A stretch of 64,000 bases of DNA from an uncultured Rhodopila sp. (lineage in GTDB: Bacteria > Pseudomonadota > Alphaproteobacteria > Acetobacterales > Acetobacteraceae): assembly GCA_903932145.1 (NCBI GenBank), contig CAIZFE010000114.1:1-64000 (forward strand), written 5' to 3'. A program made the position numbers and the translations under genes. The notes beneath the pieces were generated by a model. The model was not told where the DNA came from. It saw only the letters and a list, made by a program, of their open reading frames with translations, and did no database searches. Below are positions 10,399 to 50,826 of the stretch, piece after piece (the first letter of the stretch is position 1; the number at the start of each line of letters is the position of its first letter).

Positions 10399-11229
10399 TC
10401 AGGCCTTGCTGAAGCCGCGCAGCGCCATGGCGAAGAACACCACGGCCATGCCAACCAGCACCGCCGGTCCCATCCATGCGTCGAACTGCTGGAAGTGGAT
10501 GAAGGCGCCTCGGAGGGCGTCCACCGCGTAGGTCATCGGGTTGAACCGCACCACGATCATCAGCCACTCCGGATAGATCACGCTGGTCTGTGCGCTGGTC
10601 AGCGACGGATCGAGCGGGAATACCGAACTGGAGGTGAAATACAGCGGCAGAATCACGGCGTTGGAGAACACCCCGAACCCTTCAAAACTACGGATGCGGC
10701 CGGCAATAACGACACCGAGCGAGGTCAGGCCAAAGGCCAGAAGGGCCATCAGCAGCAGGCCCCGGGCGATATCGCCGATCGACAGCGAAAGGTCGGCGAA
10801 ACGGGCCAGCACCAGCACGAGGCAGCCATGGAACAGCGCGACCGTTGCGCCCCCGAGTATCTTTCCCAGCAGGATGGTGGCGCGCGGCAGCGGAGAAACG
10901 AGGACCTCCCGCAGGAACCCGAACTGGCGGTCCCAGATGACGGATACCGCCGATTGGATCGAGGTGTACATGATGTTCAGCGCGATGACGGCAGGAAAAA
11001 TGAATTGCAGGTAAGTATAGGGCACGACAAAGCGGACCTCGCCATAGACCTCGCCCCGGAAATACGGGTTCAGGCCGATACCCATGATCAGCACCCACAA
11101 TAACGGCCGGCTGACCCCGCCGATCAACTGCCCTCGGTCGCGGACAGCACGTTTCACTTCACGGAACCAGATCGCATAGAGGCCGCCGGCGTGCAGGCGG
11201 AACGTGTAGGCCAGACCGGATTCGCTCAT
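10399..11229 (-). CDS. ABC-2 type permease, PQQ alcohol dehydrogenase system
   Basis: A 276-aa ABC-2 type permease with about six membrane helices (for example VVPYTYLQFIFPAVIALNI and GLLLMALLAFGLTSLGVVIAG) and the conserved LYFTSSSVFPLDPS region before the last helix pair. It overlaps the ATPase gene by 4 bp (ATGA) and so is translationally coupled. ABC-2 permeases usually export. In quinoprotein clusters this half-transporter is a regular companion of the dehydrogenase, with an unproven substrate. The presence of two periplasmic binding proteins next to an export-type permease is an unresolved feature of these systems. Confidence 0.88.
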   Translation of the reverse strand: MSESGLAYTFRLHAGGLYAIWFREVKRAVRDRGQLIGGVSRPLLWVLIMGIGLNPYFRGEVYGEVRFVVPYTYLQFIFPAVIALNIMYTSIQSAVSVIWDRQFGFLREVLVSPLPRATILLGKILGGATVALFHGCLVLVLARFADLSLSIGDIARGLLLMALLAFGLTSLGVVIAGRIRSFEGFGVFSNAVILPLYFTSSSVFPLDPSLTSAQTSVIYPEWLMIVVRFNPMTYAVDALRGAFIHFQQFDAWMGPAVLVGMAVVFFAMALRGFSKA

Positions 11230-41406: not shown

Positions 41407-42549
41407 TCAAAACAGTTCCATTGATCCACTCTCCGACGCCGCGTTGCTCCGAACCATGTTTTCGGGCGCTTCATGCGGCTTGCCGTCCAGCAGATGGGCG
41501 ACAAATCGTTCGCGCACGTCACTCATTGTGTAGCGTGAAAGCAGGCTTTTCACCCACTCTGTATCGATGATCGTATTTGCGAATTCAGGCGCGGCCTCGG
41601 CTGTGCTGCGTGCCAAGTCCTCGATCGCCTCGCCGATCACATGCAGCGTGTCGACGACGTGTTCCAGTCGCTGCTTGGTCCGATCTTGAAACTGAATTCC
41701 CGTGACCATACCATCGACATCGGCGGAAATCACGGCCGACTCTTTGACGGCGCTCGCAACCACGGTTGACAATTCTCTGGTGCGGCGAACCAGGGCTGGT
41801 AGCAGGATGTCAAGCTGTTCCTTGACCTGGATGTTGTTCGTCATATCTACCGTGGCCACTTTCCTGAGCGAATCGTATCCGCTTGTTATGCCCTGTATAA
41901 TTGCCTTGAGTTCCCCGTTCATCGTGATGGAGTGGGTCTGCATGGCCTTTGACAGTTCGCGGACCTCGTCAGCCACGACGCGAAACGTCAATCCGGCCTG
42001 TCCTGCACGCTCGGCTTCGATACGGGCATTCAGCGCCAGCATGTTCGTGGTGCGATTGATTTGATCCATGCTGGAAAGGCAGGCTTCTATGCGTTTGACG
42101 TTGGCGTTCAGCAAGTCCAGCGCATAGACCATGGACATGGAATCTTTGGACAGCAGCAGGATCTTCCCGACCACATCGCTGAGCGCGGTTTCCAGAAGAG
42201 TGGCGATTTGTTCGATCGATGTCGTCTTGCCGTCCACATCGACGCCCATCGCAAGGTTCGTCAGACTATCGACCCGTACCGTTTGTTGCTGCGTGCCAAT
42301 CGCCAGCCCTTGAAAACGCAGACTGAGTGAATCGGCTTCGGTTTCGACAAAACTAGACGTGCGATTGATCTCACCCGCCAGCGCGTGAATCACCCGTTGC
42401 TGCATGGTGGCGAGTGACATCCAGCGCTGCAATAAGGCGGTATGAGGTGACGATGGCGGCGCCTCTTCATCGCACGTCGGCACCGGCGGTACAATCGGTA
42501 TGACCGGTGCCTCAATCGCGCGGGTGCGCTTCTTAAAAAAACTAAACAT
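41407..42549 (-). CDS. Receptor-like coiled-coil protein with CheZ-like phosphatase signature
   Basis: A 380-aa soluble protein, last intact gene of the che operon, with its ATG 1 bp after the cheB stop. A Pro-rich N-terminus is followed by long helices. Residues 165-200 match the chemoreceptor hairpin tip (NRTTNMLALNARIEAERAG, VVADEVRELS). Residues 284-306 (GIQFQDRTKQRLEHVVDTL) match the CheZ active-site helix, in which Asp and Gln of DxxxQ (here Asp289, Gln293, within FQDxTxQ) attack phospho-CheY. The protein ends ESGSMELF, like the CheD tail PGSVELF. No separate cheZ is present. I infer a receptor-derived CheY-P phosphatase or a scaffold with that activity; the receptor part is certain, the phosphatase part is a motif-based prediction. 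Confidence 0.8.
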   Translation of the reverse strand: MFSFFKKRTRAIEAPVIPIVPPVPTCDEEAPPSSPHTALLQRWMSLATMQQRVIHALAGEINRTSSFVETEADSLSLRFQGLAIGTQQQTVRVDSLTNLAMGVDVDGKTTSIEQIATLLETALSDVVGKILLLSKDSMSMVYALDLLNANVKRIEACLSSMDQINRTTNMLALNARIEAERAGQAGLTFRVVADEVRELSKAMQTHSITMNGELKAIIQGITSGYDSLRKVATVDMTNNIQVKEQLDILLPALVRRTRELSTVVASAVKESAVISADVDGMVTGIQFQDRTKQRLEHVVDTLHVIGEAIEDLARSTAEAAPEFANTIIDTEWVKSLLSRYTMSDVRERFVAHLLDGKPHEAPENMVRSNAASESGSMELF

Positions 42550-42550
42550 C

Positions 42551-43612
42551 TCAGACCCGTATGCCGCGTTTGGCGGTTGCCTGGCAGTTATACAAGACCT
42601 GGTCGGGAATTTTGCCGATTGGCAACTCGATCTCGGAGGCGCCGCAATCGTGCGCGGCTTTGGGCATGCCATAGATCACGCAAGACGCTTCATCCTGCCC
42701 GATCGTTGACGCACCGGCACGACGCATTTCCAGCAGCCCTGCCGCGCCATCTTTGCCCATGCCCGTCAGGATGATACCGACCGCATTGGCGCCGGCCGCC
42801 CGCGCCACAGAGCGAAACAGCACATCAACGGATGGGCGATGCCCGGATACCGACGCCTGGTCATGCAACCGGCAAATGTAGTTCGCCCCGGACCGAGCGA
42901 GTTCCATATGGTGGGAGCCGGGGGCGATATAGACGTGCCCGGGTAGGATGCGATCGCCGTCGGACGCCTGCCTGACCGAAACGGCACAGTTCTGATCGAG
43001 TCGGTTGGCAAACTGGGCAGTGAATGCCGGCGGCATGTGTTGGGTCACCAGGATGGCAGGCGCGTCAGGCGGGAAAGCGGACAGCAATGTATGCAATGCC
43101 TCCACCCCCCCGGTTGACGCGCCCACAGCAATCAGTTTTTCGGACGAGCTGTAACCGGCACTTGTCACGGATCGTGTTGGCTTTTGGGCGTTTTGCGTCA
43201 GTGGCTGTACGCGCGCGCGCGCCGCCTGCTTCACCTTGGAAACAATTTCGTCGCGCATCGCGATAAAGCCTTCCTTCAGGCCGATCGTCGGTTTGGCCAC
43301 ATAGTCAACCGCCCCCATTTCCAGCGCGTGAAGCGCCGTATCGGCACCTTTCTGGGTCAGGGATGAAATCATCAACACCGGCATTGGCCGCAGGGTCATG
43401 ATCTTCTCCAGGAACACCAACCCGTCCATTCTTGGCATCTCGATGTCCAGCGTAACGACGTCGGGGTTCAATGACTTGATCATCTCCCGGGCAACGAATG
43501 GATCGGGGGCCGCGCCAACCACGGTGATGGAAGAGTCTGACTGTAACAATTCGGTGAGCATTTGACGCACCAAAGCTGAGTCATCGACGATAAGCACCCG
43601 GATTTGTGTCAT
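42551..43612 (-). CDS. cheB: Chemotaxis response regulator protein-glutamate methylesterase
   Basis: A 353-aa protein. The N-terminal receiver domain carries acidic pocket Asp10/Asp11 and phospho-acceptor Asp56 (VTLDIEMPRMDG). A linker of about 40 residues leads to the methylesterase domain with catalytic Ser (VGASTGGVEAL), His (TQHMPPAF) and Asp (GMGKDGAAG). It removes methyl groups from receptor glutamates, and deamidates, when phosphorylated by CheA. It follows cheD by 9 bp. Confidence 0.97.
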   Translation of the reverse strand: MTQIRVLIVDDSALVRQMLTELLQSDSSITVVGAAPDPFVAREMIKSLNPDVVTLDIEMPRMDGLVFLEKIMTLRPMPVLMISSLTQKGADTALHALEMGAVDYVAKPTIGLKEGFIAMRDEIVSKVKQAARARVQPLTQNAQKPTRSVTSAGYSSSEKLIAVGASTGGVEALHTLLSAFPPDAPAILVTQHMPPAFTAQFANRLDQNCAVSVRQASDGDRILPGHVYIAPGSHHMELARSGANYICRLHDQASVSGHRPSVDVLFRSVARAAGANAVGIILTGMGKDGAAGLLEMRRAGASTIGQDEASCVIYGMPKAAHDCGASEIELPIGKIPDQVLYNCQATAKRGIRV

Positions 43613-43621
43613 GGTGGGGCC

Positions 43622-44254
43622 CTAGAACAATTCAACCGAACCCGGAACGGGCTCGAATAGAAGTTTCGATTTGTATTTGGCTTCGCATTTGACGACCGCT
43701 ATTTCTTCGGGTCTGCGCAGTTCCAGAAGCATGACCTGTCCTGTGGCCGGGAAGAAGTGCACACGACGCGGCAGATCCCCGCGCAGATGCGCCGCTGCGA
43801 TCCGCAATCCTTCGGCAGCAAGATACTCCTCCACGAAGTCGGCATTACGGTGCCCGATATTGCTGCTACCGCGCATGACATTGCCGCCGCCGAACACCTT
43901 TATCTCCAGGCGTTGACGCAGTCCGCCGCGGGCCAGAATATCGTTAATCAGGCGTTCCATGGCGACGTTGCCATAGCGCATGCAGGGCGAAGCACCACCC
44001 CATCCGTCGCCCCCTGATTCAGGCAACATGAAGTGGTTCATGCCGCCAACACCGATAACCGGGTCGCGGATGCAGGCGGCCACACACGACCCCAGGACGG
44101 TGACGAGCATCTCACCCGCTGAATCCGTGACGTAATGTTCTCCAGGGAACACCTTCACCGCAACGGCATCGAACCGAGGATCACGATACCGATGTGTATT
44201 TACCGACTCCGGGCTTTCCAGCGCTCGTTTGTAGCGAACAAGGGTTTGCGCCAT
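43622..44254 (-). CDS. cheD: Chemoreceptor glutamine deamidase CheD
   Basis: A 210-aa CheD with an N-terminal extension of about 35 residues. The core has the active Cys in LGSCVAACI, His in GGMNHFMLP, then KVFGGGNVM and NIGHRNADFVEEYL. It deamidates receptor glutamines and may exchange with CheY-P-type partners. The ATG overlaps the cheR stop (TGATG); a GTG one codon upstream is possible. The C-terminus PGSVELF is almost the same as that of the receptor/CheZ-like protein two genes downstream. Confidence 0.95.
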   Translation of the reverse strand: MAQTLVRYKRALESPESVNTHRYRDPRFDAVAVKVFPGEHYVTDSAGEMLVTVLGSCVAACIRDPVIGVGGMNHFMLPESGGDGWGGASPCMRYGNVAMERLINDILARGGLRQRLEIKVFGGGNVMRGSSNIGHRNADFVEEYLAAEGLRIAAAHLRGDLPRRVHFFPATGQVMLLELRRPEEIAVVKCEAKYKSKLLFEPVPGSVELF

Positions 44255-45081
44255 CACCGGATCCTCCGATAGATCGTGCGGCCCACCAGATCGAACCGAT
44301 CCGAGATGTTCGTCAGGCTTTCGGAGTGTCCGACGAACAACCAGCCATCGGGACGCAGTATAGTCGCGAAACGATCGAACAGGCGCCGTTGGGTGGGCTT
44401 ATCGAAATAAATGACGACATTCCGGCAGAAAATGACATCGAATGGCCCGGTCATCGGCCAGTCTTCGAGCAAATTAAGCGGCTTGAATGTAATCAGGGAT
44501 CGCAACGTGTCATCCATGGCGGCGCGCCCGTCTGGCTCCGTCGAGACGTATTGCTTCCGGAGCGGCGGAGGGATCGCCTCAACGCGCTCGGCGTCATACA
44601 GTCCCTCGGCAGCATGTCTGACCACGTTCGTGTCCAGGTCGGTCGCGAGAACCCGGACGTCCCAGCCATTCATCGGCAATCGGCAATCGCGCAAAGTCAT
44701 AGCCAGTGAATAAGGTTCTTCTCCCGTCGAACATCCCGCCGACCATAATCTGAGGCGGCCGTTGCGCGGCCCATTCGCCTTGATCGTCGCCGGCAGGACG
44801 GTCTGCGCCAGGTAGTCGAAATGATGCGACTCCCGAAAGAAGCTGGTGTGGTTGGTGGTGATGGCATTGACAAGCATGTCCTGTTCGCCAGCCCCCTCCG
44901 GGCCCTCGAGCAGGCGGCAATATTCGGCGAAGTTGGCCAGACCTAGAATCCGCAGGCGCCGGCCCAGGCGCCCATGGATGAACGCGCGCTTCCGATCGTC
45001 GATCACGATGCCCGACCGCTTGGCGACCAAGGCAGAGATTTTCCGGAAGTCGTCATCGTGAAGCGCGTATTCGCTCTGCAT
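44254..45081 (-). CDS. cheR: Chemotaxis protein methyltransferase
   Basis: A 275-aa CheR: N-terminal helical domain (DFRKISALVAKRSGIVI) and a SAM-dependent methyltransferase domain with NHTSFFRESHHFDYL, LRLWSAGCSTGEEPYSLAM and FDVIFCRNVVIYFDKPTQ. The ATG at 45081 is chosen over a longer frame that runs into the spacer. It methylates receptor glutamates with SAM. The large receptor upstream ends in a Trp-x2-Phe tail that could tether this enzyme. Confidence 0.97.
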   Translation of the reverse strand: MQSEYALHDDDFRKISALVAKRSGIVIDDRKRAFIHGRLGRRLRILGLANFAEYCRLLEGPEGAGEQDMLVNAITTNHTSFFRESHHFDYLAQTVLPATIKANGPRNGRLRLWSAGCSTGEEPYSLAMTLRDCRLPMNGWDVRVLATDLDTNVVRHAAEGLYDAERVEAIPPPLRKQYVSTEPDGRAAMDDTLRSLITFKPLNLLEDWPMTGPFDVIFCRNVVIYFDKPTQRRLFDRFATILRPDGWLFVGHSESLTNISDRFDLVGRTIYRRIR

Positions 45082-45157
45082 CACTATTCCTGCGCAACAA
45101 AAGGACTCGCGCCGATCCATCGATACCGATGGATCGGCGCCGGATCAGAAGTCCAAC

Positions 45158-47518
45158 TTAGAATTGCTTCCAGTCGGTATCCCCGCCTCGTACGGCACGA
45201 CGGGGAGCCGGCGCCGGCTCCCGCTGGAACCGCGGGGTGTCGGTGTTGGCGACGGGACGGACTGTTCGCACCAGGGGCGGGGCTTCCCGGCCCGAGCGAA
45301 AGGCGCGGTCGTTGGCAGCGTGGTTCGACGACCTCGGCGCAGGCGCGGGTGCCCGGGCCGGGGCTGCGGCGAAGCCATCGGACAGTCTGAATTGCGCCAC
45401 CATCTCTGCCATCGAGGCGGTCTGGTCCTCCATCGACTTCGCCGCCGCCGCCGCCTCTTCGACCAACGCGGCGTTCTGCTGGGTCACCTTGTCCATCTGC
45501 ACGATGGCGGTGTTCACCTGCTCGATGCCGCCACGCTGTTCCTGCGACGCGGCCGAAATTTCGGCCATTATATCGGTTACGCGCCGCACCGATTGCACGA
45601 TGTCTTCCATGGTTTTGCCGGCGGTATCGACCAACCGGGACCCGGATTCCACCTTCGAGACCGAGTCAGAGATCAGCCCCTTGATCTCTTTCGCGGCGTT
45701 AGCACTGCGCTGAGCCAGGTTGCGGACTTCCGCGGCGACGACTGCAAAGCCACGCCCCTGATCACCGGCACGCGCGGCTTCCACCGCGGCATTCAGTGCC
45801 AGGATGTTGGTCTGGAAGGCGATTTCGTCGATCACGCCGATGATGTCGGCGATCTTCCGGCTGGCCTGGGTAATGCCGTCCATGGTGTGAACCACCTCGG
45901 ACACCACGGAACCACCCTTGATCGCGACTTCCGAGGCCGACGACGTCAGCTTGTTGGCCTGTTGAGCATTCTCGGCATTCTGACGCACCGTGTTGGTCAG
46001 TTGCTCCATGCTGGCAGCGGTTTCCTCCAGGCTGGCCGCCTGTTCCTCGGTCCGTTGCGACAGATCGGTGTTGCCGGAGGCAATTTCCCGCGCCGCGAGC
46101 GTGAGGGTTTGTGCGGTCTCCGAAATCTCTCCAATCATCGAAGACATCGTGTCGAGAAGTCCGTTCACGCCCTCGCAAAGCTGCGCGATGTCGCCGGTCT
46201 TTCCCTCCAGCGGGATACGATGACGGAGATCGTTTTCTTTTGCTGCGTTGACGACGTCCTGTGTTTGCTGGACGGCAGCCTGGAGCACTTCGGATGCCTT
46301 GACCTGGGCGGTGATGTCGGTTGCGTATTTCACAACCTTGAACGGCTTGTGATCCGGGCCGTAAATCGGGTTGTAGCTTGCTTGGATCCAAACCTCCTTG
46401 CCACCCTTGCCGATACGTTTGTATTGGCCCGAGTCAAATTCTCCGCGACCCAATTTGTCCCAGAACATCCGGTAGTCAGCACTTTGACGATAGCTGAGAT
46501 CGACGAACATGGAGTGGTGCTGGCCGACCAATTCGTTTCCGGAGTAACCGAGCGTGTTGAGAAAATTGTCGTTAGCGCGCAGAACCTTGCCATCGAGCGT
46601 AAATTCAATCACCGCCTGCGCTTTGTTGATCGCATCGATCTGCCCGCTGAAATCAGCGTTTCTGATCACCTGCTCGGTAATATCGGTGGCGTATTTAACA
46701 ACTTTGAAGGGCTTGCCGTCCGGTCCCATGATCGGATTATAGCTGGCTTGAATCCAGACCTCTTTCCCGGCCTTGCCGATGCGTTTATACTGACCGGCGT
46801 CATACTCGCCGCGGCCCAATTTGTCCCAAAACATCCGGTAATCGTGGGTCTGACGATACGCTAACTCGACGAACATCGAATGATGCTGGCCGACGATTTC
46901 CGCTTCTGAATAACCCAACGCGTTCAGGAAATGCTCATTCGCCCGCAGAACCTTGCCTTCCAGCGTGAATTCGATGACGGCCTGTGCTTTGTTGATAGCC
47001 AAGATCTGGCCGCTAAAATCGGCATTCTTCATCACCTGCTCGGTGATATCGGTGGCGTATTTAACAACCTTGAACGGCTTGCCGTCCGGTCCCATGATCG
47101 GATTATAGCTGGCCTGAATCCAGACCTCTTTGCCGCCTTTTCCGATACGCTTATATTGACCCGCGTCGTATTCGCCACGCCCGAGCTTATCCCAGAAAGC
47201 ACGGTAATCGTTGGTTTGACGATACGCTGGCTCCACAAACATGGAATGATGTTGGCCGACGATTTCCTGTTCCGCATAACCGAGCGCGTTCAGGAAATTG
47301 TCGTTGGCACGAAGGACCTTGCCGTCGAGTGAGAACTCAATGACCGCCTGTGCTTTGTTAATGGCTGCAATCTGTCCGCTGAAATCCGCGTTCTTCAGCG
47401 CCTGCGCAGCGCCTTCAGTCGGCTTTGTGGCCAATTTTTCTAAGACGGGCTTGGGCTTGGGCTTGGGCGCCGACTTGATCTTGGTTTTTTCTTCGATCGT
47501 CGCGATGGTGGGGGGCAT
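45158..47518 (-). CDS. Soluble chemoreceptor with three near-identical PAS domains
   Basis: A 786-aa cytosolic methyl-accepting protein. A Lys/Pro-rich head (KPKPKPKP) is followed by three PAS domains with a 122-residue period (residues 43-164, 165-286, 287-408), each reading NADFSGQI...[10 protein letters not shown]...GQHHSMFV...[12 protein letters not shown]-like/coiled-coil region and the signalling domain come next, with tip [38 protein letters not shown] and flanking methylation helices. The C-terminus DTDWKQF resembles the CheR-docking pentapeptide (NWETF in E. coli). No membrane segment is present, so it senses an internal signal, plausibly redox or oxygen through PAS ligands. Confidence 0.95.
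46295..47392 (-). repeat. Three 366-bp tandem repeats encoding PAS domains
   Basis: Units lie at 47392-47027, 47026-46661 and 46660-46295, all in frame, with most codons identical between copies. The high DNA identity points to recent unequal duplication or ongoing gene conversion and makes the copy number prone to change. Confidence 0.88.
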
Positions 47519-47559: not shown

Positions 47560-48111
47560 TTAGGCGGCTTTTGCCGTCTGCGTTTCCGCCTGGCTGTGTC
47601 GGGCTTCGGGAGTGGTTTTAGGGCTTCCAAACAGACCGGACAGCGAGACGAGGGTTACCATTCTGTCTTCCAGCGCGACCAATCCGTCGAGAAACTGATC
47701 ATGGGTGGGTAGTCCCATTTCCGGAATGGGGCGGATAGCGCCAGGATCGACCGATATGATGTCCGAGACGGTATCCACCAACAGCCCGATCGTCCTGGTT
47801 GCGGCAGCGACGATGATGACGACGTGCATCTTGGTCGGGTTGGTCATGCCCATGCCGAAACGGGCGCGCAGGTCGAAAATGGGCACGATCACGCCACGTA
47901 AATTGATGACGCCGCGGACATGAGCGGGGGCATTCGGGATCATCGTTGTATCTGTCCAACCCTTGATCTCGCGCACCACCATGATGTCGATGCCGTACTC
48001 CTCGGCACCCAGTGTGAAGGTGATAAACTGTTGTGTGTTTTTGCCAGTGGCCTCCCGATCCAGACTATCGTTGGCGAGGGTACTGACCATCGATTGAATC
48101 GCTGGCTGCAT
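47560..48111 (-). CDS. cheW: Chemotaxis coupling protein
   Basis: A 183-aa CheW of the usual two SH3-like barrels, with FTLGAEEYGIDIMVVREIKGW, RGVINLRGVIVPIFDLRARFG, TIGLLVDTVSDIISV and GLVALEDRMVTLVSLSGLFG. The N-terminal 20 residues and a short C-terminal tail extend beyond the core. It bridges receptors to CheA. It lies between cheA (25 bp upstream) and the triple-PAS receptor. Confidence 0.96.
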   Translation of the reverse strand: MQPAIQSMVSTLANDSLDREATGKNTQQFITFTLGAEEYGIDIMVVREIKGWTDTTMIPNAPAHVRGVINLRGVIVPIFDLRARFGMGMTNPTKMHVVIIVAAATRTIGLLVDTVSDIISVDPGAIRPIPEMGLPTHDQFLDGLVALEDRMVTLVSLSGLFGSPKTTPEARHSQAETQTAKAA

Positions 48112-48136: not shown

Positions 48137-50191
48137 TTAATGAGCTCGGGCGGTCTCGCGGACCTCGGCCCATCGGCGGGTCGGCTCCGGGCGGTTCGCG
48201 CAGTCGCTTTCGCGAAGGCGCGCGATATCCAAAATCAAAGCCACCCGGCCATTTCCAAGGATCGTTGCGCCGCTGATGCCGTCGACCCTGTCGTAGTTGG
48301 CCTCAAGACTTTTCACGACGACCTGCTGCTGTCCGAGAAGGTCATCAACAACCACGCCGATCCGGCCCGCACCCTCGCTCTGCACGATGATCACGATGCC
48401 ATGGCACGGATCGGCAATCGCGTTTGCGATCGAGAATTGCCTATGTAAATGGATCAGCGGAACATATTCGCCGCGAAGCCCCAGGACGTCGCCGCGCCCG
48501 ACCACAGGATGAACGTCGGCTGCCTTGGGTCGGAGGCTTTCTATGATCGCAGTTAAAGGAATAATGTAGGTCTCGCTGCCAACCGAAACGACCATGCCGT
48601 CGAGCACGGCGAGCGTCAGCGGCAGCGACAGAATAAACCGGGAGCCCGCGCCAAACTGAGACTGCACCGTGATGCGACCTCCAAGCGTTTGGACATTACG
48701 CTTGACGACGTCCATGCCGACGCCGCGCCCAGAAATATTCGACACTTTGTCGGCGGTGGAAAACGCTGGCAGAAAAATAAGATTGTCGATTTCTTCGTCA
48801 CTCAGGGTCGCCCCGGCCGGAACCAGCCCGCGGCTTTGGGCTTTAGCCACCACCTTTCCACGGTCAATTCCGCGCCCATCATCTGACACTTCGATAACGA
48901 TACGGCCACTGCGCTGGGCCGCGCCAAGGTGAATGGTTCCCTGGCGTGGCTTACCCACCCCCGCTCGAATATCCGGCATTTCAATGCCATGATCGATGGC
49001 ATTGCGGATCATATGGGTTAGCGGATCATTCAATTGCTCAATGACCGTCTTGTCGATTTCGGTCATTTCGCCGGTCGTTATGATCCGGACCTCCTTACCG
49101 AGGGTGGCAGCAAGGTCGCGAACGATGCGAGGCATCCGAGCGAAGACCGATTTCACAGGCTGGGCCCGGATCGCCATGACGCTTTCCTGGAGTTCCCTTG
49201 CGCTCTGTGCCAGCGCCTCTATGCCTTGAATCAAGGCAGGATAATGATCCAAGGGCAGCAGCGAACTTTGTTCCGTCAACATCGCCTGGGTAATCACCAT
49301 TTCACCCACCAGATTGACCAGACGGTCCACCTTGTCGACGTCAACCCGGATCGATTGGGTGGGCGTGATTGCCGCGGACGCCGTCTCTTCAATTTTGACC
49401 GCCGGCACTGCCATCAATGGCCAAGCCGCGTCGGCGATGATCGGGTCTGCGATGGTGGCGGTCGATACGACTTGTATTGTCAGGTCGCAATCATCCTCGA
49501 CGAATTCAAAAACCTCATGGATGGCACTTTCCGGGGCACCCGTATCCAGGGTGTATATCCAACTTAGATATGCGGCCTCGGGTTCGATTTCCGCCAGCCT
49601 CGGAATACGAGAGGTGTCGACTTCAATACTCAGGCCGCCAAGTCGCCGTAATTGCCGTACCAGCAACAACGGTTCGTTGGCATTGCGGAGCATCTCGGAG
49701 TGGGGGGCAAACACAATCCGATAGCGGCTTTCGCCATTTGCCCTGGTTGCATCCGCTGCCACGGCGATGTTTGCAGGCTTGGCGCACATGTTTTCGGAGG
49801 AAGCGACCAGCAACTCTTCCAGAGATGCGCTGATATCGCCGGCAAAGCCCGCTGGGACCGCGGAATCATCCCGCGCGGCGCTTACGATATCGCCTAACGC
49901 GTCGCTTGCACGTAGCAGGAGCTGGATGACATCGAGGTTGACCTGAACCTTTCGGTCTCGTATCGCATCCAGCAAGCTTTCGAAAACATGGGAGAAGGTC
50001 ACTAGGGTGGCGAAACCGAAGGCTCCCGCCCCACCTTTTATTGAATGAACGGAACGAAATATCGCATGGAGGGTTTCTTCATCACCGCCGCCGTTTGACA
50101 GTTGCTCAAGATGGGATTGCAATGCGTCCAGGAGTTCGGCGCATTCCTCGAAGTAAGTTTTACGAAATTGGGCGAGGGGGTTCGCGTCCAT
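48137..50191 (-). CDS. cheA: Chemotaxis histidine kinase
   Basis: A 684-aa CheA. P1/Hpt has phospho-acceptor His49 (FRSVHSIKGGAGAFG). A variable middle part follows (a P2-like region at about 160-250). The P3 dimerisation helices contain VDKVDRLVNLVGEMVITQAML. P4 ATPase holds N box HMIRNAIDHGIE, G1 VSDDGRGID and G2 GRGVGMDVVKRNV. The P5 CheW-like domain reaches GEYVPLIHLHRQF and LLGQQQVVVKSLE. It phosphorylates CheY and CheB. The ATG directly follows the cheY stop (TAAATG). Confidence 0.97.
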   Translation of the reverse strand: MDANPLAQFRKTYFEECAELLDALQSHLEQLSNGGGDEETLHAIFRSVHSIKGGAGAFGFATLVTFSHVFESLLDAIRDRKVQVNLDVIQLLLRASDALGDIVSAARDDSAVPAGFAGDISASLEELLVASSENMCAKPANIAVAADATRANGESRYRIVFAPHSEMLRNANEPLLLVRQLRRLGGLSIEVDTSRIPRLAEIEPEAAYLSWIYTLDTGAPESAIHEVFEFVEDDCDLTIQVVSTATIADPIIADAAWPLMAVPAVKIEETASAAITPTQSIRVDVDKVDRLVNLVGEMVITQAMLTEQSSLLPLDHYPALIQGIEALAQSARELQESVMAIRAQPVKSVFARMPRIVRDLAATLGKEVRIITTGEMTEIDKTVIEQLNDPLTHMIRNAIDHGIEMPDIRAGVGKPRQGTIHLGAAQRSGRIVIEVSDDGRGIDRGKVVAKAQSRGLVPAGATLSDEEIDNLIFLPAFSTADKVSNISGRGVGMDVVKRNVQTLGGRITVQSQFGAGSRFILSLPLTLAVLDGMVVSVGSETYIIPLTAIIESLRPKAADVHPVVGRGDVLGLRGEYVPLIHLHRQFSIANAIADPCHGIVIIVQSEGAGRIGVVVDDLLGQQQVVVKSLEANYDRVDGISGATILGNGRVALILDIARLRESDCANRPEPTRRWAEVRETARAH

Positions 50192-50557
50192 TTACGGGCA
50201 AACACGCTGGATCAGTTCGATGAGTTTCTCCGGGCTGAAAGGCTTGACCAGCCATCCCGTGGCGCCGGCTGCTTTGCCTTCCGCCTTTTTCGTTCCATCG
50301 CTTTCAGTTGTCAGGATTAGAATGGGTACGCCGCGATGATGGGAACCGGATCGCACATTTTTTATCAGAGAGATGCCGTCCATTACAGGCATATTCAGGT
50401 CGGTGATGATCAGATCAAATTTGTTACCATCAAGGACGGAAAGCGCTTTCTTTCCATCTTCCGCCTCATTTACGTCAAAACCTGCCTTTCGTAAGGTAAA
50501 CGAAACCATATCGCGCATGGTTTTTGAGTCGTCAACAGTGAGGATTCGTTTCGCCAT
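50192..50557 (-). CDS. cheY: Chemotaxis response regulator CheY
   Basis: A 121-aa single receiver domain with acidic pocket Asp9/Asp10 (TVDDSKTM), phospho-acceptor Asp53 (IITDLNMPVMDG), the conserved Thr in LILTTESDG and Lys in WLVKPFSP. Phosphorylated by CheA, it acts on the flagellar motor or as a phosphate sink. The ATG at 50557 follows the STAS gene stop by 2 bp. The CheZ-like protein at 41407 is a candidate for its dephosphorylation. Confidence 0.96.
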   Translation of the reverse strand: MAKRILTVDDSKTMRDMVSFTLRKAGFDVNEAEDGKKALSVLDGNKFDLIITDLNMPVMDGISLIKNVRSGSHHRGVPILILTTESDGTKKAEGKAAGATGWLVKPFSPEKLIELIQRVCP

Positions 50558-50559
50558 AT

Positions 50560-50826
50560 TCAGTCCATCCAAATGCTGAAATCCGCTTCCAATCCCAGAT
50601 CGGCAACTGCCATGCGGAATGCCGCGGATGCGTGCGTAATTCTAAACGAGGTGGCAGCCGAGCCGGCGGCACGTCCAGTTGCAAGGAGTAACTGGACGCA
50701 GGGCGTGGACATGCGATCGACGGCGCTTGCATCCAGGGTTAATGCCCCAGTAGGCAAGAGTGCCATTACCATGTCTCGCAGGGACTGTGCGTGCGCGAAA
50801 TCCAGGATCTGTGGCAACGTGTTCAT
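50560..50826 (-). CDS. STAS-domain protein, first gene of the che operon
   Basis: An 88-aa single STAS domain (ALTLDASAVDRMSTPCVQLLLATGRAA, FRITHASAAFRMAVADLGL). It is the first gene of the operon, 2 bp before cheY. In several alphaproteobacterial che operons a small protein encoded just before cheY-cheA (for example CheS of Sinorhizobium) helps CheA to bind or drain CheY-P; position and size make this the closest analogy. No conserved phosphorylatable Ser of anti-sigma antagonists is evident, so phospho-control is doubtful. Confidence 0.8.
   Translation of the reverse strand: MNTLPQILDFAHAQSLRDMVMALLPTGALTLDASAVDRMSTPCVQLLLATGRAAGSAATSFRITHASAAFRMAVADLGLEADFSIWMD

What the first reader, a model, noticed from the sequence alone, without database searches (positions are those of the whole stretch)
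41407..42549. Chemoreceptor-like protein carrying a CheZ-type phosphatase signature
The last intact gene of the che operon joins a recognisable receptor tip (NMLALNARIEAERAG) with FQDRTKQ, which aligns with the CheZ active-site helix FQDLTGQ (Asp and Gln four residues apart, flanked by similar hydrophobic and charged positions). Alphaproteobacteria mostly lack CheZ and use phosphate-sink CheYs; only one cheY is in this operon. A receptor-derived CheY-P phosphatase would close the signalling loop in a way not named in standard models.
Basis: partly seen in the sequence, partly recalled or inferred. Interest (0 to 1): 0.75.

Follow-up and report, generated by a model that had tools for sequence, protein, structure and literature searches.

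The report
Receptor-like protein with CheZ phosphatase site
A protein filed as an ordinary bacterial chemoreceptor (the McpA-like family) carries, almost without exception, the active-site helix of the signal-ending phosphatase CheZ, which suggests it is the missing off-switch of an old and puzzling class of chemosensory systems; the activity itself has not yet been tested.

Summary
The minus-strand gene 42549-41407 encodes a 380-residue protein with an intact receptor tip and QFQDRTKQ (Asp289, Gln293). Asp and Gln are in 207 of 210 relatives, nearly always 115-116 residues from the tip; the three exceptions sit beside an intact copy and also lack the C-terminal tail. Profile comparison with 22 CheZ proteins gives 90.7% (89.5% with 53 distant relatives alone), noise when the motif is masked, and 2.2% for 48 other receptors. 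Helical wheels mostly place Asp/Gln on the exposed face, as in CheZ. Gene order matches the published F7 'stage 1' cluster, so this is the 'McpA-like chemoreceptor', whose function and conserved C-terminus are called unclear (PMC7184735). Those clusters have cheY but no cheZ of their own. New here: the CheZ-type site, co-occurrence with CheD (22 of 22 and 62 of 65 genomes), and a C-terminal tail shared by McpA-like proteins, CheD and CheT. Phosphatase activity is inferred; no assay or structure could be run.

The parts
41407..42549 (-). McpA-like, receptor-type protein with CheZ-type motif (380 aa), the subject of the finding
   Evidence: homologues
41992..42045 (-). codons 169-186: receptor tip NMLALNARIEAERAGQAG (expected CheA/CheW contact)
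   Evidence: CheA/CheW contact recalled from MCP biology
41671..41694 (-). codons 286-293: QFQDRTKQ, CheZ-type active-site motif (Asp289, Gln293)
41410..41427 (-). codons 375-380: C-terminal tail GSMELF, shared with CheD
42551..43612 (-). cheB
43622..44257 (-). cheD
43625..43642 (-). CheD C-terminal tail GSVELF
44254..45120 (-). cheR
45158..47518 (-). receptor with three PAS domains in the aer2-like place, ends in DWKQF (CheR pentapeptide type)
47560..48111 (-). cheW
48137..50191 (-). cheA
50192..50572 (-). cheY, the only one in the operon
50560..50826 (-). small STAS protein (anti-sigma antagonist type, place of CheS)
   Evidence: 58% identity over 84 residues to the Pfam-recognised STAS protein of L017

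Best explanation
The gene encodes an McpA-like protein of an ancestral-type F7 chemosensory operon that works as a CheZ-type phosphatase built on a chemoreceptor scaffold. It forms an antiparallel helical hairpin whose tip can join a CheA/CheW array; about 15 heptads up the C-terminal helix an exposed QFxDxxxQ patch (Asp289 to salt-bridge the conserved CheY lysine, Gln293 to place the attacking water, as in CheZ) dephosphorylates the operon's CheY, possibly also the receiver of the linked response-regulator/SpoIIE protein. A flexible C-terminal tail (G-[SD]-Phi-[ED]-L-F), like that on CheD and on CheT, docks it to a shared, unidentified partner. Shown here: motif, conservation, profile similarity to CheZ, operon and CheD linkage, shared tail; exposure by wheel prediction only. 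Inferred: catalysis, substrate, array insertion, role of the tail.
For: D289/Q293 in 121 of 121 close relatives, 45 of 45 loci and 207 of 210 in the wide set, with columns Q286, F287, Q293, D289 ranking 3, 4, 5, 8 of 380. hhalign to 22 CheZ: 90.7%, E 1.3e-6; with 17 members not found by a motif pattern 80.8%, with 53 distant members alone 89.5%. Controls: reversed target 1.9%, reversed CheZ 1.3%, motif masked 1.4%, residues 1-254 2.3%, 28 receptors chosen to lack QDxxxQ 1.0%, 48 other receptors without that choice 2.2%. Asp/Gln wheel angles 122/174 degrees versus 108/159 in CheZ. The three variants lost D, Q and tail together and each sits beside an intact copy (one lineage, so one event). Published F7 stage 1-2 clusters have cheY and mcpA-like but no cheZ; mcpA-like is lost at stage 3 while the F6 cheY/cheZ pair is kept (PMC7184735). 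The nearest recognised neighbour is CheY (22, six of them on the other strand) or STAS/RR-SpoIIE (22) in 44 of 50 wide-set loci (my reading). 17 of 17 linked CheYs printed have D-x-N, T-x-E and KPF.
Against: No biochemistry and no structure model. No Pfam CheZ match for the window protein; the similarity is confined to about 45 residues. Other receptors also often contain DxxxQ (31 of 48). The wheel depends on the stretch used: from residues 262-285 alone Asp289 comes out at 18-62 degrees, towards the core. 18 of 22 genomes with the family also have a CheZ. The tail does not resemble the CheZ CheY-binding end. In P. aeruginosa, McpA is reported with the F6 array, its loss leaves F7 arrays intact, and it is implicated in trichloroethylene chemotaxis, which fits a receptor too.
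Confidence: 0.64

Rival explanations
1. It is only a chemoreceptor (McpA-like); QFxDxxxQ is a structural or coupling element of a long hairpin, and the CheZ likeness is convergence of coiled-coil sequence.
For: Pfam sees only MCPsignal above its cut-off. Best PDB relative is a receptor hairpin, T. maritima 2ch7. Some other receptors carry MDxxTQQ about 100 residues after the tip, and 31 of 48 other receptors have some DxxxQ there. McpA/CttP is reported as a receptor.
Against: 48 other receptors give 2.2% against CheZ, the family 80.8-90.7%. MDxxTQQ is at +93/+100, the motif at +115/+116, not a whole number of heptads apart for 115. A structural role does not readily predict outward polar invariants or joint loss with the tail.
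Confidence: 0.22
2. It is a CheZ-type phosphatase, but its substrate is the response-regulator/SpoIIE protein of the linked partner switch, not CheY.
For: STAS, HATPase_c_2 and SpoIIE-type genes follow the gene in 10 of 10 loci L016-L025, and STAS/RR-SpoIIE is the nearest recognised neighbour in 22 of 50 wide-set loci.
Against: No such genes were found behind the gene in the window, yet the motif is kept; in another 22 of 50 loci the neighbour is CheY.
Confidence: 0.12
3. It is a partner or substrate of CheD: the conserved glutamines are deamidation sites and the protein serves adaptation, not signal termination.
For: Co-occurs with CheD in 22 of 22 and 62 of 65 genomes and shares its tail.
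Against: The recalled deamidation consensus (small residues around the glutamines) is not seen; it does not explain Asp289 or the CheZ likeness. CheD has the tail without the family too.
Confidence: 0.06

Closest known systems
McpA-like chemoreceptors of F7 clusters (P. aeruginosa McpA/CttP PA0180, V. cholerae VCA1088; PMC7184735 passages and Discussion, PMC7534058 passages)
   Same: Same place in the same gene order; MCP signalling domain; conserved C-terminus without the aromatic residue that the CheR pentapeptide has at position 2.
   Different: Described as receptors with a transmembrane region and unclear function; the window protein and most of alignment A2 lack a strongly hydrophobic stretch. 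No phosphatase site is mentioned in the passages read.
CheZ (PF04344; E. coli 1kmi; Azorhizobium CheZ, PMC7750401 passages)
   Same: FQDxTxQ(R) helix, Asp/Gln spacing, flanking VVxTL pattern, similar wheel angles.
   Different: No receptor tip in CheZ; no Pfam match here; different C-terminal peptide; the window has Gly where CheZ has the AXXFQ alanine (some relatives have Ala).
CheT (NF047973; S. meliloti, via PMC12654446 passages, original paper not held)
   Same: DxxxQ with Gln at -3, end of a cheD-containing operon, C-terminal Phi-[DE]-[LF]-F tail.
   Different: About 130 aa, no receptor tip, no detectable homology (hhalign 5.0%).
CheC/CheX/FliY phosphatases with CheD (recalled)
   Same: A CheY-P phosphatase functionally paired with CheD.
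   Different: Unrelated fold and ExxN motif (recalled); no Pfam CheC match here.

Membership tests
McpA-like chemoreceptors | MCPsignal domain | tested here: met
   E 3.6e-19
McpA-like chemoreceptors | next to an F7 cluster with cheY-cheA-cheW-aer2-cheR-cheD-cheB order | tested here: met
   against the order given in PMC7184735; the window has one cheW where stage 1 has two, and the F7 class of its CheA was not tested by a class model
McpA-like chemoreceptors | conserved C-terminus without aromatic at pentapeptide position 2 | tested here: met
   SMELF; 119 of 120 listed relatives end [DE][LM]F
McpA-like chemoreceptors | transmembrane region | tested here: not met
   max 19-residue hydropathy 1.59 in the window; 3 of 56 in A2 and 27 of 53 in the wide set reach 1.6. 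Reported for the two named proteins; PMC7184735 defined the group by sequence clustering, not by this feature
McpA-like chemoreceptors | orthology to PA0180 itself | not testable with these tools
CheZ | match to PF04344 | tested here: not met
CheZ | DxxxQ in CheZ helix context | tested here: met
   hhalign 90.7%, controls at most 2.3%
CheZ | CheZ-type C-terminal CheY-binding peptide | tested here: not met
   GSMELF versus DIDKLLADF-type ends
CheZ | CheY-P phosphatase activity | not testable with these tools
   needs assay
CheT | match to NF047973 | tested here: not met
   not among the families at E up to 1; hhalign 5.0%
CheT | DxxxQ motif | tested here: met

The most novel reading that the evidence does not exclude
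McpA-like proteins are the F7 system's own CheY-P phosphatases: a proteobacteria-wide family in which a receptor hairpin was turned into an array-resident CheZ-type enzyme. CheD, CheT and McpA-like proteins carry one common C-terminal docking tail for an unknown shared partner, so that signal termination and receptor modification are coupled. When F7 took over the F6 cheY/cheZ pair on the way to E. coli, the old receptor-phosphatase was dropped.
Probability: 0.45. Interest if true: 0.87.

Novelty: new variant of a known kind. Interest (0 to 1): 0.74.

Why it matters
PMC7184735 states that the function of McpA-like receptors in ancestral F7 systems, and of their strikingly conserved C-terminus, is unclear, and that in these organisms only the F6 clusters carry cheZ. 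A CheZ-type site and a tail shared with CheD turn both puzzles into point-mutant experiments. If true, a phosphatase built into a receptor body would place signal production and termination in one array, and would explain why mcpA-like genes vanish when the cheY/cheZ pair of the other system takes over.

Tried and rejected
Bare-motif reasoning: rejected as evidence by itself, because 31 of 48 other receptors contain a DxxxQ in the same stretch. My first receptor control (28 sequences) had been chosen to lack QDxxxQ; I repeated it without that choice (48 sequences, 2.2%). CheZ replacement at genome level: rejected; 18 of 22 genomes with the family also have CheZ (without: G082, G110, G144, G243). 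Tail as CheR docking site (idea from CheT-CheR binding): weakened, since PMC7184735 reports that the valine at position 2 in P. aeruginosa McpA prevents interaction with any of its four CheR proteins. Homology to CheT: not detected. Tail as a mark of the family only: rejected; CheD has it in genomes without the family. Remnant of the partner-switch genes behind the gene in the window: none found. Pfam match of alignment members to CheZ: none for the window, and not among the 25 families shown for the 56 members (164 further families not shown).

Selections: from 54 loci, L016-L038 (23) were kept as family and 31 dropped as general receptors by eye on match length and score; one search shows that one of the dropped (L039, a Spirochaetes bin) has SLQFQDRTRQ. 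In one search, 22 genomes with matches of 150 bits or more were kept; the next was one partial at 111, then below 70. In one search, 72 matches of 119 bits or more in 65 genomes were taken as family (next 102); 50 loci were read, two of them the same place (L179, L228) and some from one genome. Rows seen twice elsewhere: L070 is the window; L071/L027, L078/L029 and L089/L036 give the same proteins. Genomes are not independent, so the Fisher values are descriptive. In one search, 8 of 20 loci gave an ORF with a DxxxQ string behind cheD; I judged 6 CheT-like and dropped L236 and L241.

Full report
What is there. On the minus strand, bases 42549-41407 encode a 380-residue protein, one base behind the stop of cheB. 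It is the last gene of the operon STAS, cheY, cheA, cheW, PAS-receptor, cheR, cheD, cheB, target. It has an MCP signalling domain and an intact tip, no strongly hydrophobic stretch (max 19-residue hydropathy 1.59), and a single DxxxQ at D289-Q293 in the string QFQDRTKQ. The window lies in a 6.66 Mb genome in 115 contigs, 100% complete by the tool's estimate. The best named relatives are Rhodopila globiformis and Bradyrhizobium sp. Y36, 58% each (records very near the window's genome may be left out there).

Conservation. Among the 120 listed relatives (of 3138) plus the window, D289 and Q293 are 121 of 121, as fixed as the tip. In 45 proteins, down to 21% identity, 45 of 45 have both. In the 56-sequence alignment only 12 columns are invariant: seven in the tip region, D235, and Q286, Q288, D289, Q293. 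A phylum search then found the family outside the class (72 matches of at least 119 bits in 65 of 299 genomes, next hit 102 bits). I read 50 loci with 53 proteins. One of these genomes (L226) matches Pseudomonas orientalis at 100% identity. Together, 207 of 210 have Asp and Gln, while position 288 varies (Q, E, G, D, A). The distance from the tip asparagine to the Asp is 115 in 96 proteins and 116 in 6; two outliers were not examined further. The three proteins without Asp/Gln (in L211, L214, L216) each lie just upstream of an intact copy and also lack the C-terminal tail; they come from one genus handle, so count as one event. The search models contained the motif columns, so weak members lacking it may be under-sampled.

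Likeness to CheZ. The genome's three CheZ proteins and 19 more from the class sample were aligned; 21 of the 22 have QDxxxQ, typically as EACxFQDITGQRITKVVxTLKxIE, beside QFQDRTKQRLEHVVDTLHVIG here. Profile comparison gives 90.7% probability, E 1.3e-6, with the two motifs in register. The same test gives 80.8% with 17 members that no motif pattern had selected, and 89.5%, E 2e-6, with the 53 wide-set proteins alone. Controls: reversed target 1.9%, reversed CheZ 1.3%, 22 motif columns masked 1.4%, residues 1-254 2.3%, 28 receptors chosen to lack QDxxxQ 1.0%, all 48 other receptors in the loci without that choice 2.2%; residues 255-325 alone 80.2%. So the likeness is reproducible and local. Pfam does not call the protein CheZ.

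Exposure. Over 41 residues around the motif, Asp and Gln lie at 122 and 174 degrees from the hydrophobic side, against 108 and 159 in alphaproteobacterial CheZ and 144 and -164 in E. coli CheZ. The result depends on the stretch: residues 294-318 give 136 to 179 for Asp, residues 262-285 alone give 18 to 62. So exposure is favoured, not settled. The closest solved structure by sequence is the receptor hairpin 2ch7, aligned over nearly its whole length. With the hairpin folded at the tip, the well conserved F79 and Q89 of the first arm should fall near the motif (inference).

A caution. The operon's PAS receptor has MDKVTQ 100 residues after its tip and similar receptors the same string at 93 or 100. 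31 of 48 other receptors have some DxxxQ within 60-150 residues of the tip, but only one has QDxxxQ. DxxxQ alone is therefore not diagnostic. The usual offset of 115 is not a whole number of heptads from 93 or 100.

Surroundings. In nine of the ten loci L016-L025 the order STAS, cheY, cheA, cheW, receptor, cheR, cheD, cheB, target is complete, and in the tenth (L024) the contig starts within the receptor; in all ten, STAS, HATPase_c_2 and SpoIIE-type genes follow. None of these three was found behind the gene in the window. In other lineages the gene sits beside cheY and cheA. By my reading, 22 of 50 loci have STAS/RR-SpoIIE and 22 have a CheY-like gene as the nearest recognised neighbour (six on the other strand), 6 neither. 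All 22 class genomes with the family have CheD (33 of 289 have it), and 62 of 65 in the phylum sample (116 of 299). CheZ lies elsewhere in 18 of the 22; in the whole class sample 110 of 289 have a match, 107 above the cut-off.

The tail. The protein ends GSMELF and the CheD next to it GSVELF. In 36 loci with both proteins read (including the window itself and two repeats), the tail pattern is on the target in 35 (the other is cut by the contig end) and on CheD in 33. CheD has a like tail in genomes without the family: 7 of 8 end in ELF, some with one residue more, and in the 20 [DE][LF]F stands at or next to the end of 17. Behind cheD in such genomes I judged 6 of 20 loci to hold a small CheT-like DxxxQ protein; of five tested, two pass the NCBIfam cut-off for CheT, a third is a sub-threshold hit, two are not matched. 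CheT relatives end GDFDFF in 113 of 120 listed, like CheD in three of those loci (SIEFF). Three unrelated families thus share a tail. That it is a docking motif is inference; its partner is unknown.

What is known. PMC7184735 (passages and Discussion read; supplement not available) gives this gene order, with two cheW genes, as the ancestral F7 'stage 1' cluster and calls the protein McpA-like. It says that in stages 1-2 only the F6 systems include cheZ, that mcpA-like is lost at stage 3 while the F6 cheY/cheZ pair is kept, that McpA loss leaves F7 arrays present, that an earlier study found McpA with the F6 array, that its C-terminus is strikingly conserved with a valine where the CheR motif has an aromatic residue, and that its function is unclear. 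PMC7534058 (passages) says there are no experimental reports on VCA1088 and that CttP has been involved in chemotaxis to trichloroethylene. CheT is described, through PMC12654446 (passages), as a protein with a DXXXQ motif that enhances dephosphorylation of one of two CheYs and forms a complex with CheR; the original (Agbekudzi 2024) was not held. Ten searches of 5.39 million open papers listed no paper that I recognised from title and abstract start as naming a phosphatase site in McpA-like proteins; subscription papers and supplements were not seen.

Verdict. What is shown is conservation, CheZ likeness and linkage; exposure is predicted; catalysis, substrate and tail partner are inferred. 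The finding is a new reading of a known family rather than a new family, and it makes two stated open questions testable with point mutants.

Noticed in passing
window 41407-38775 versus L017:11144-13404: The STAS, HATPase_c_2 and RR-SpoIIE partner-switch genes that follow the gene in L016-L025 were not found in the window.
   Followed up: partly
L211:2953-3915, L214:4877-5839, L216:2938-3915: McpA-like genes just upstream of an intact copy that lost Asp, Gln and the tail together: possible pseudo-enzymes.
   Followed up: partly
L086:1495-3582 and L219:3948-5954: Double-length proteins made of two McpA-like units in one open frame.
   Followed up: no
L182, L188-L195, L197-L199, L201, L202, L207: Receptor tip reads NARIV: the tip glutamate is replaced by valine, which may change array binding.
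   Followed up: no
L229, L233, L235, L237, L239, L247: CheT or CheT-like small proteins behind cheD; five of the six end in a tail like that of CheD (L247 ends LDDQDEIW).
   Followed up: partly
G000:C101:152034, C4:355267, C86:10631 (L001-L003): Three CheZ proteins in the window's genome; two lie after a similar gene of about 231 aa that looks like a motor-related chaperone (name recalled, not tested).
   Followed up: no
L039 (Spirochaetes bin) and L069 (Pararhodospirillum oryzae, frame at 11107): Two receptor-type proteins below my family threshold carry SLQFQDRTRQVLDHLI and LQIADMTRQRVEHV; the family may reach further.
   Followed up: no
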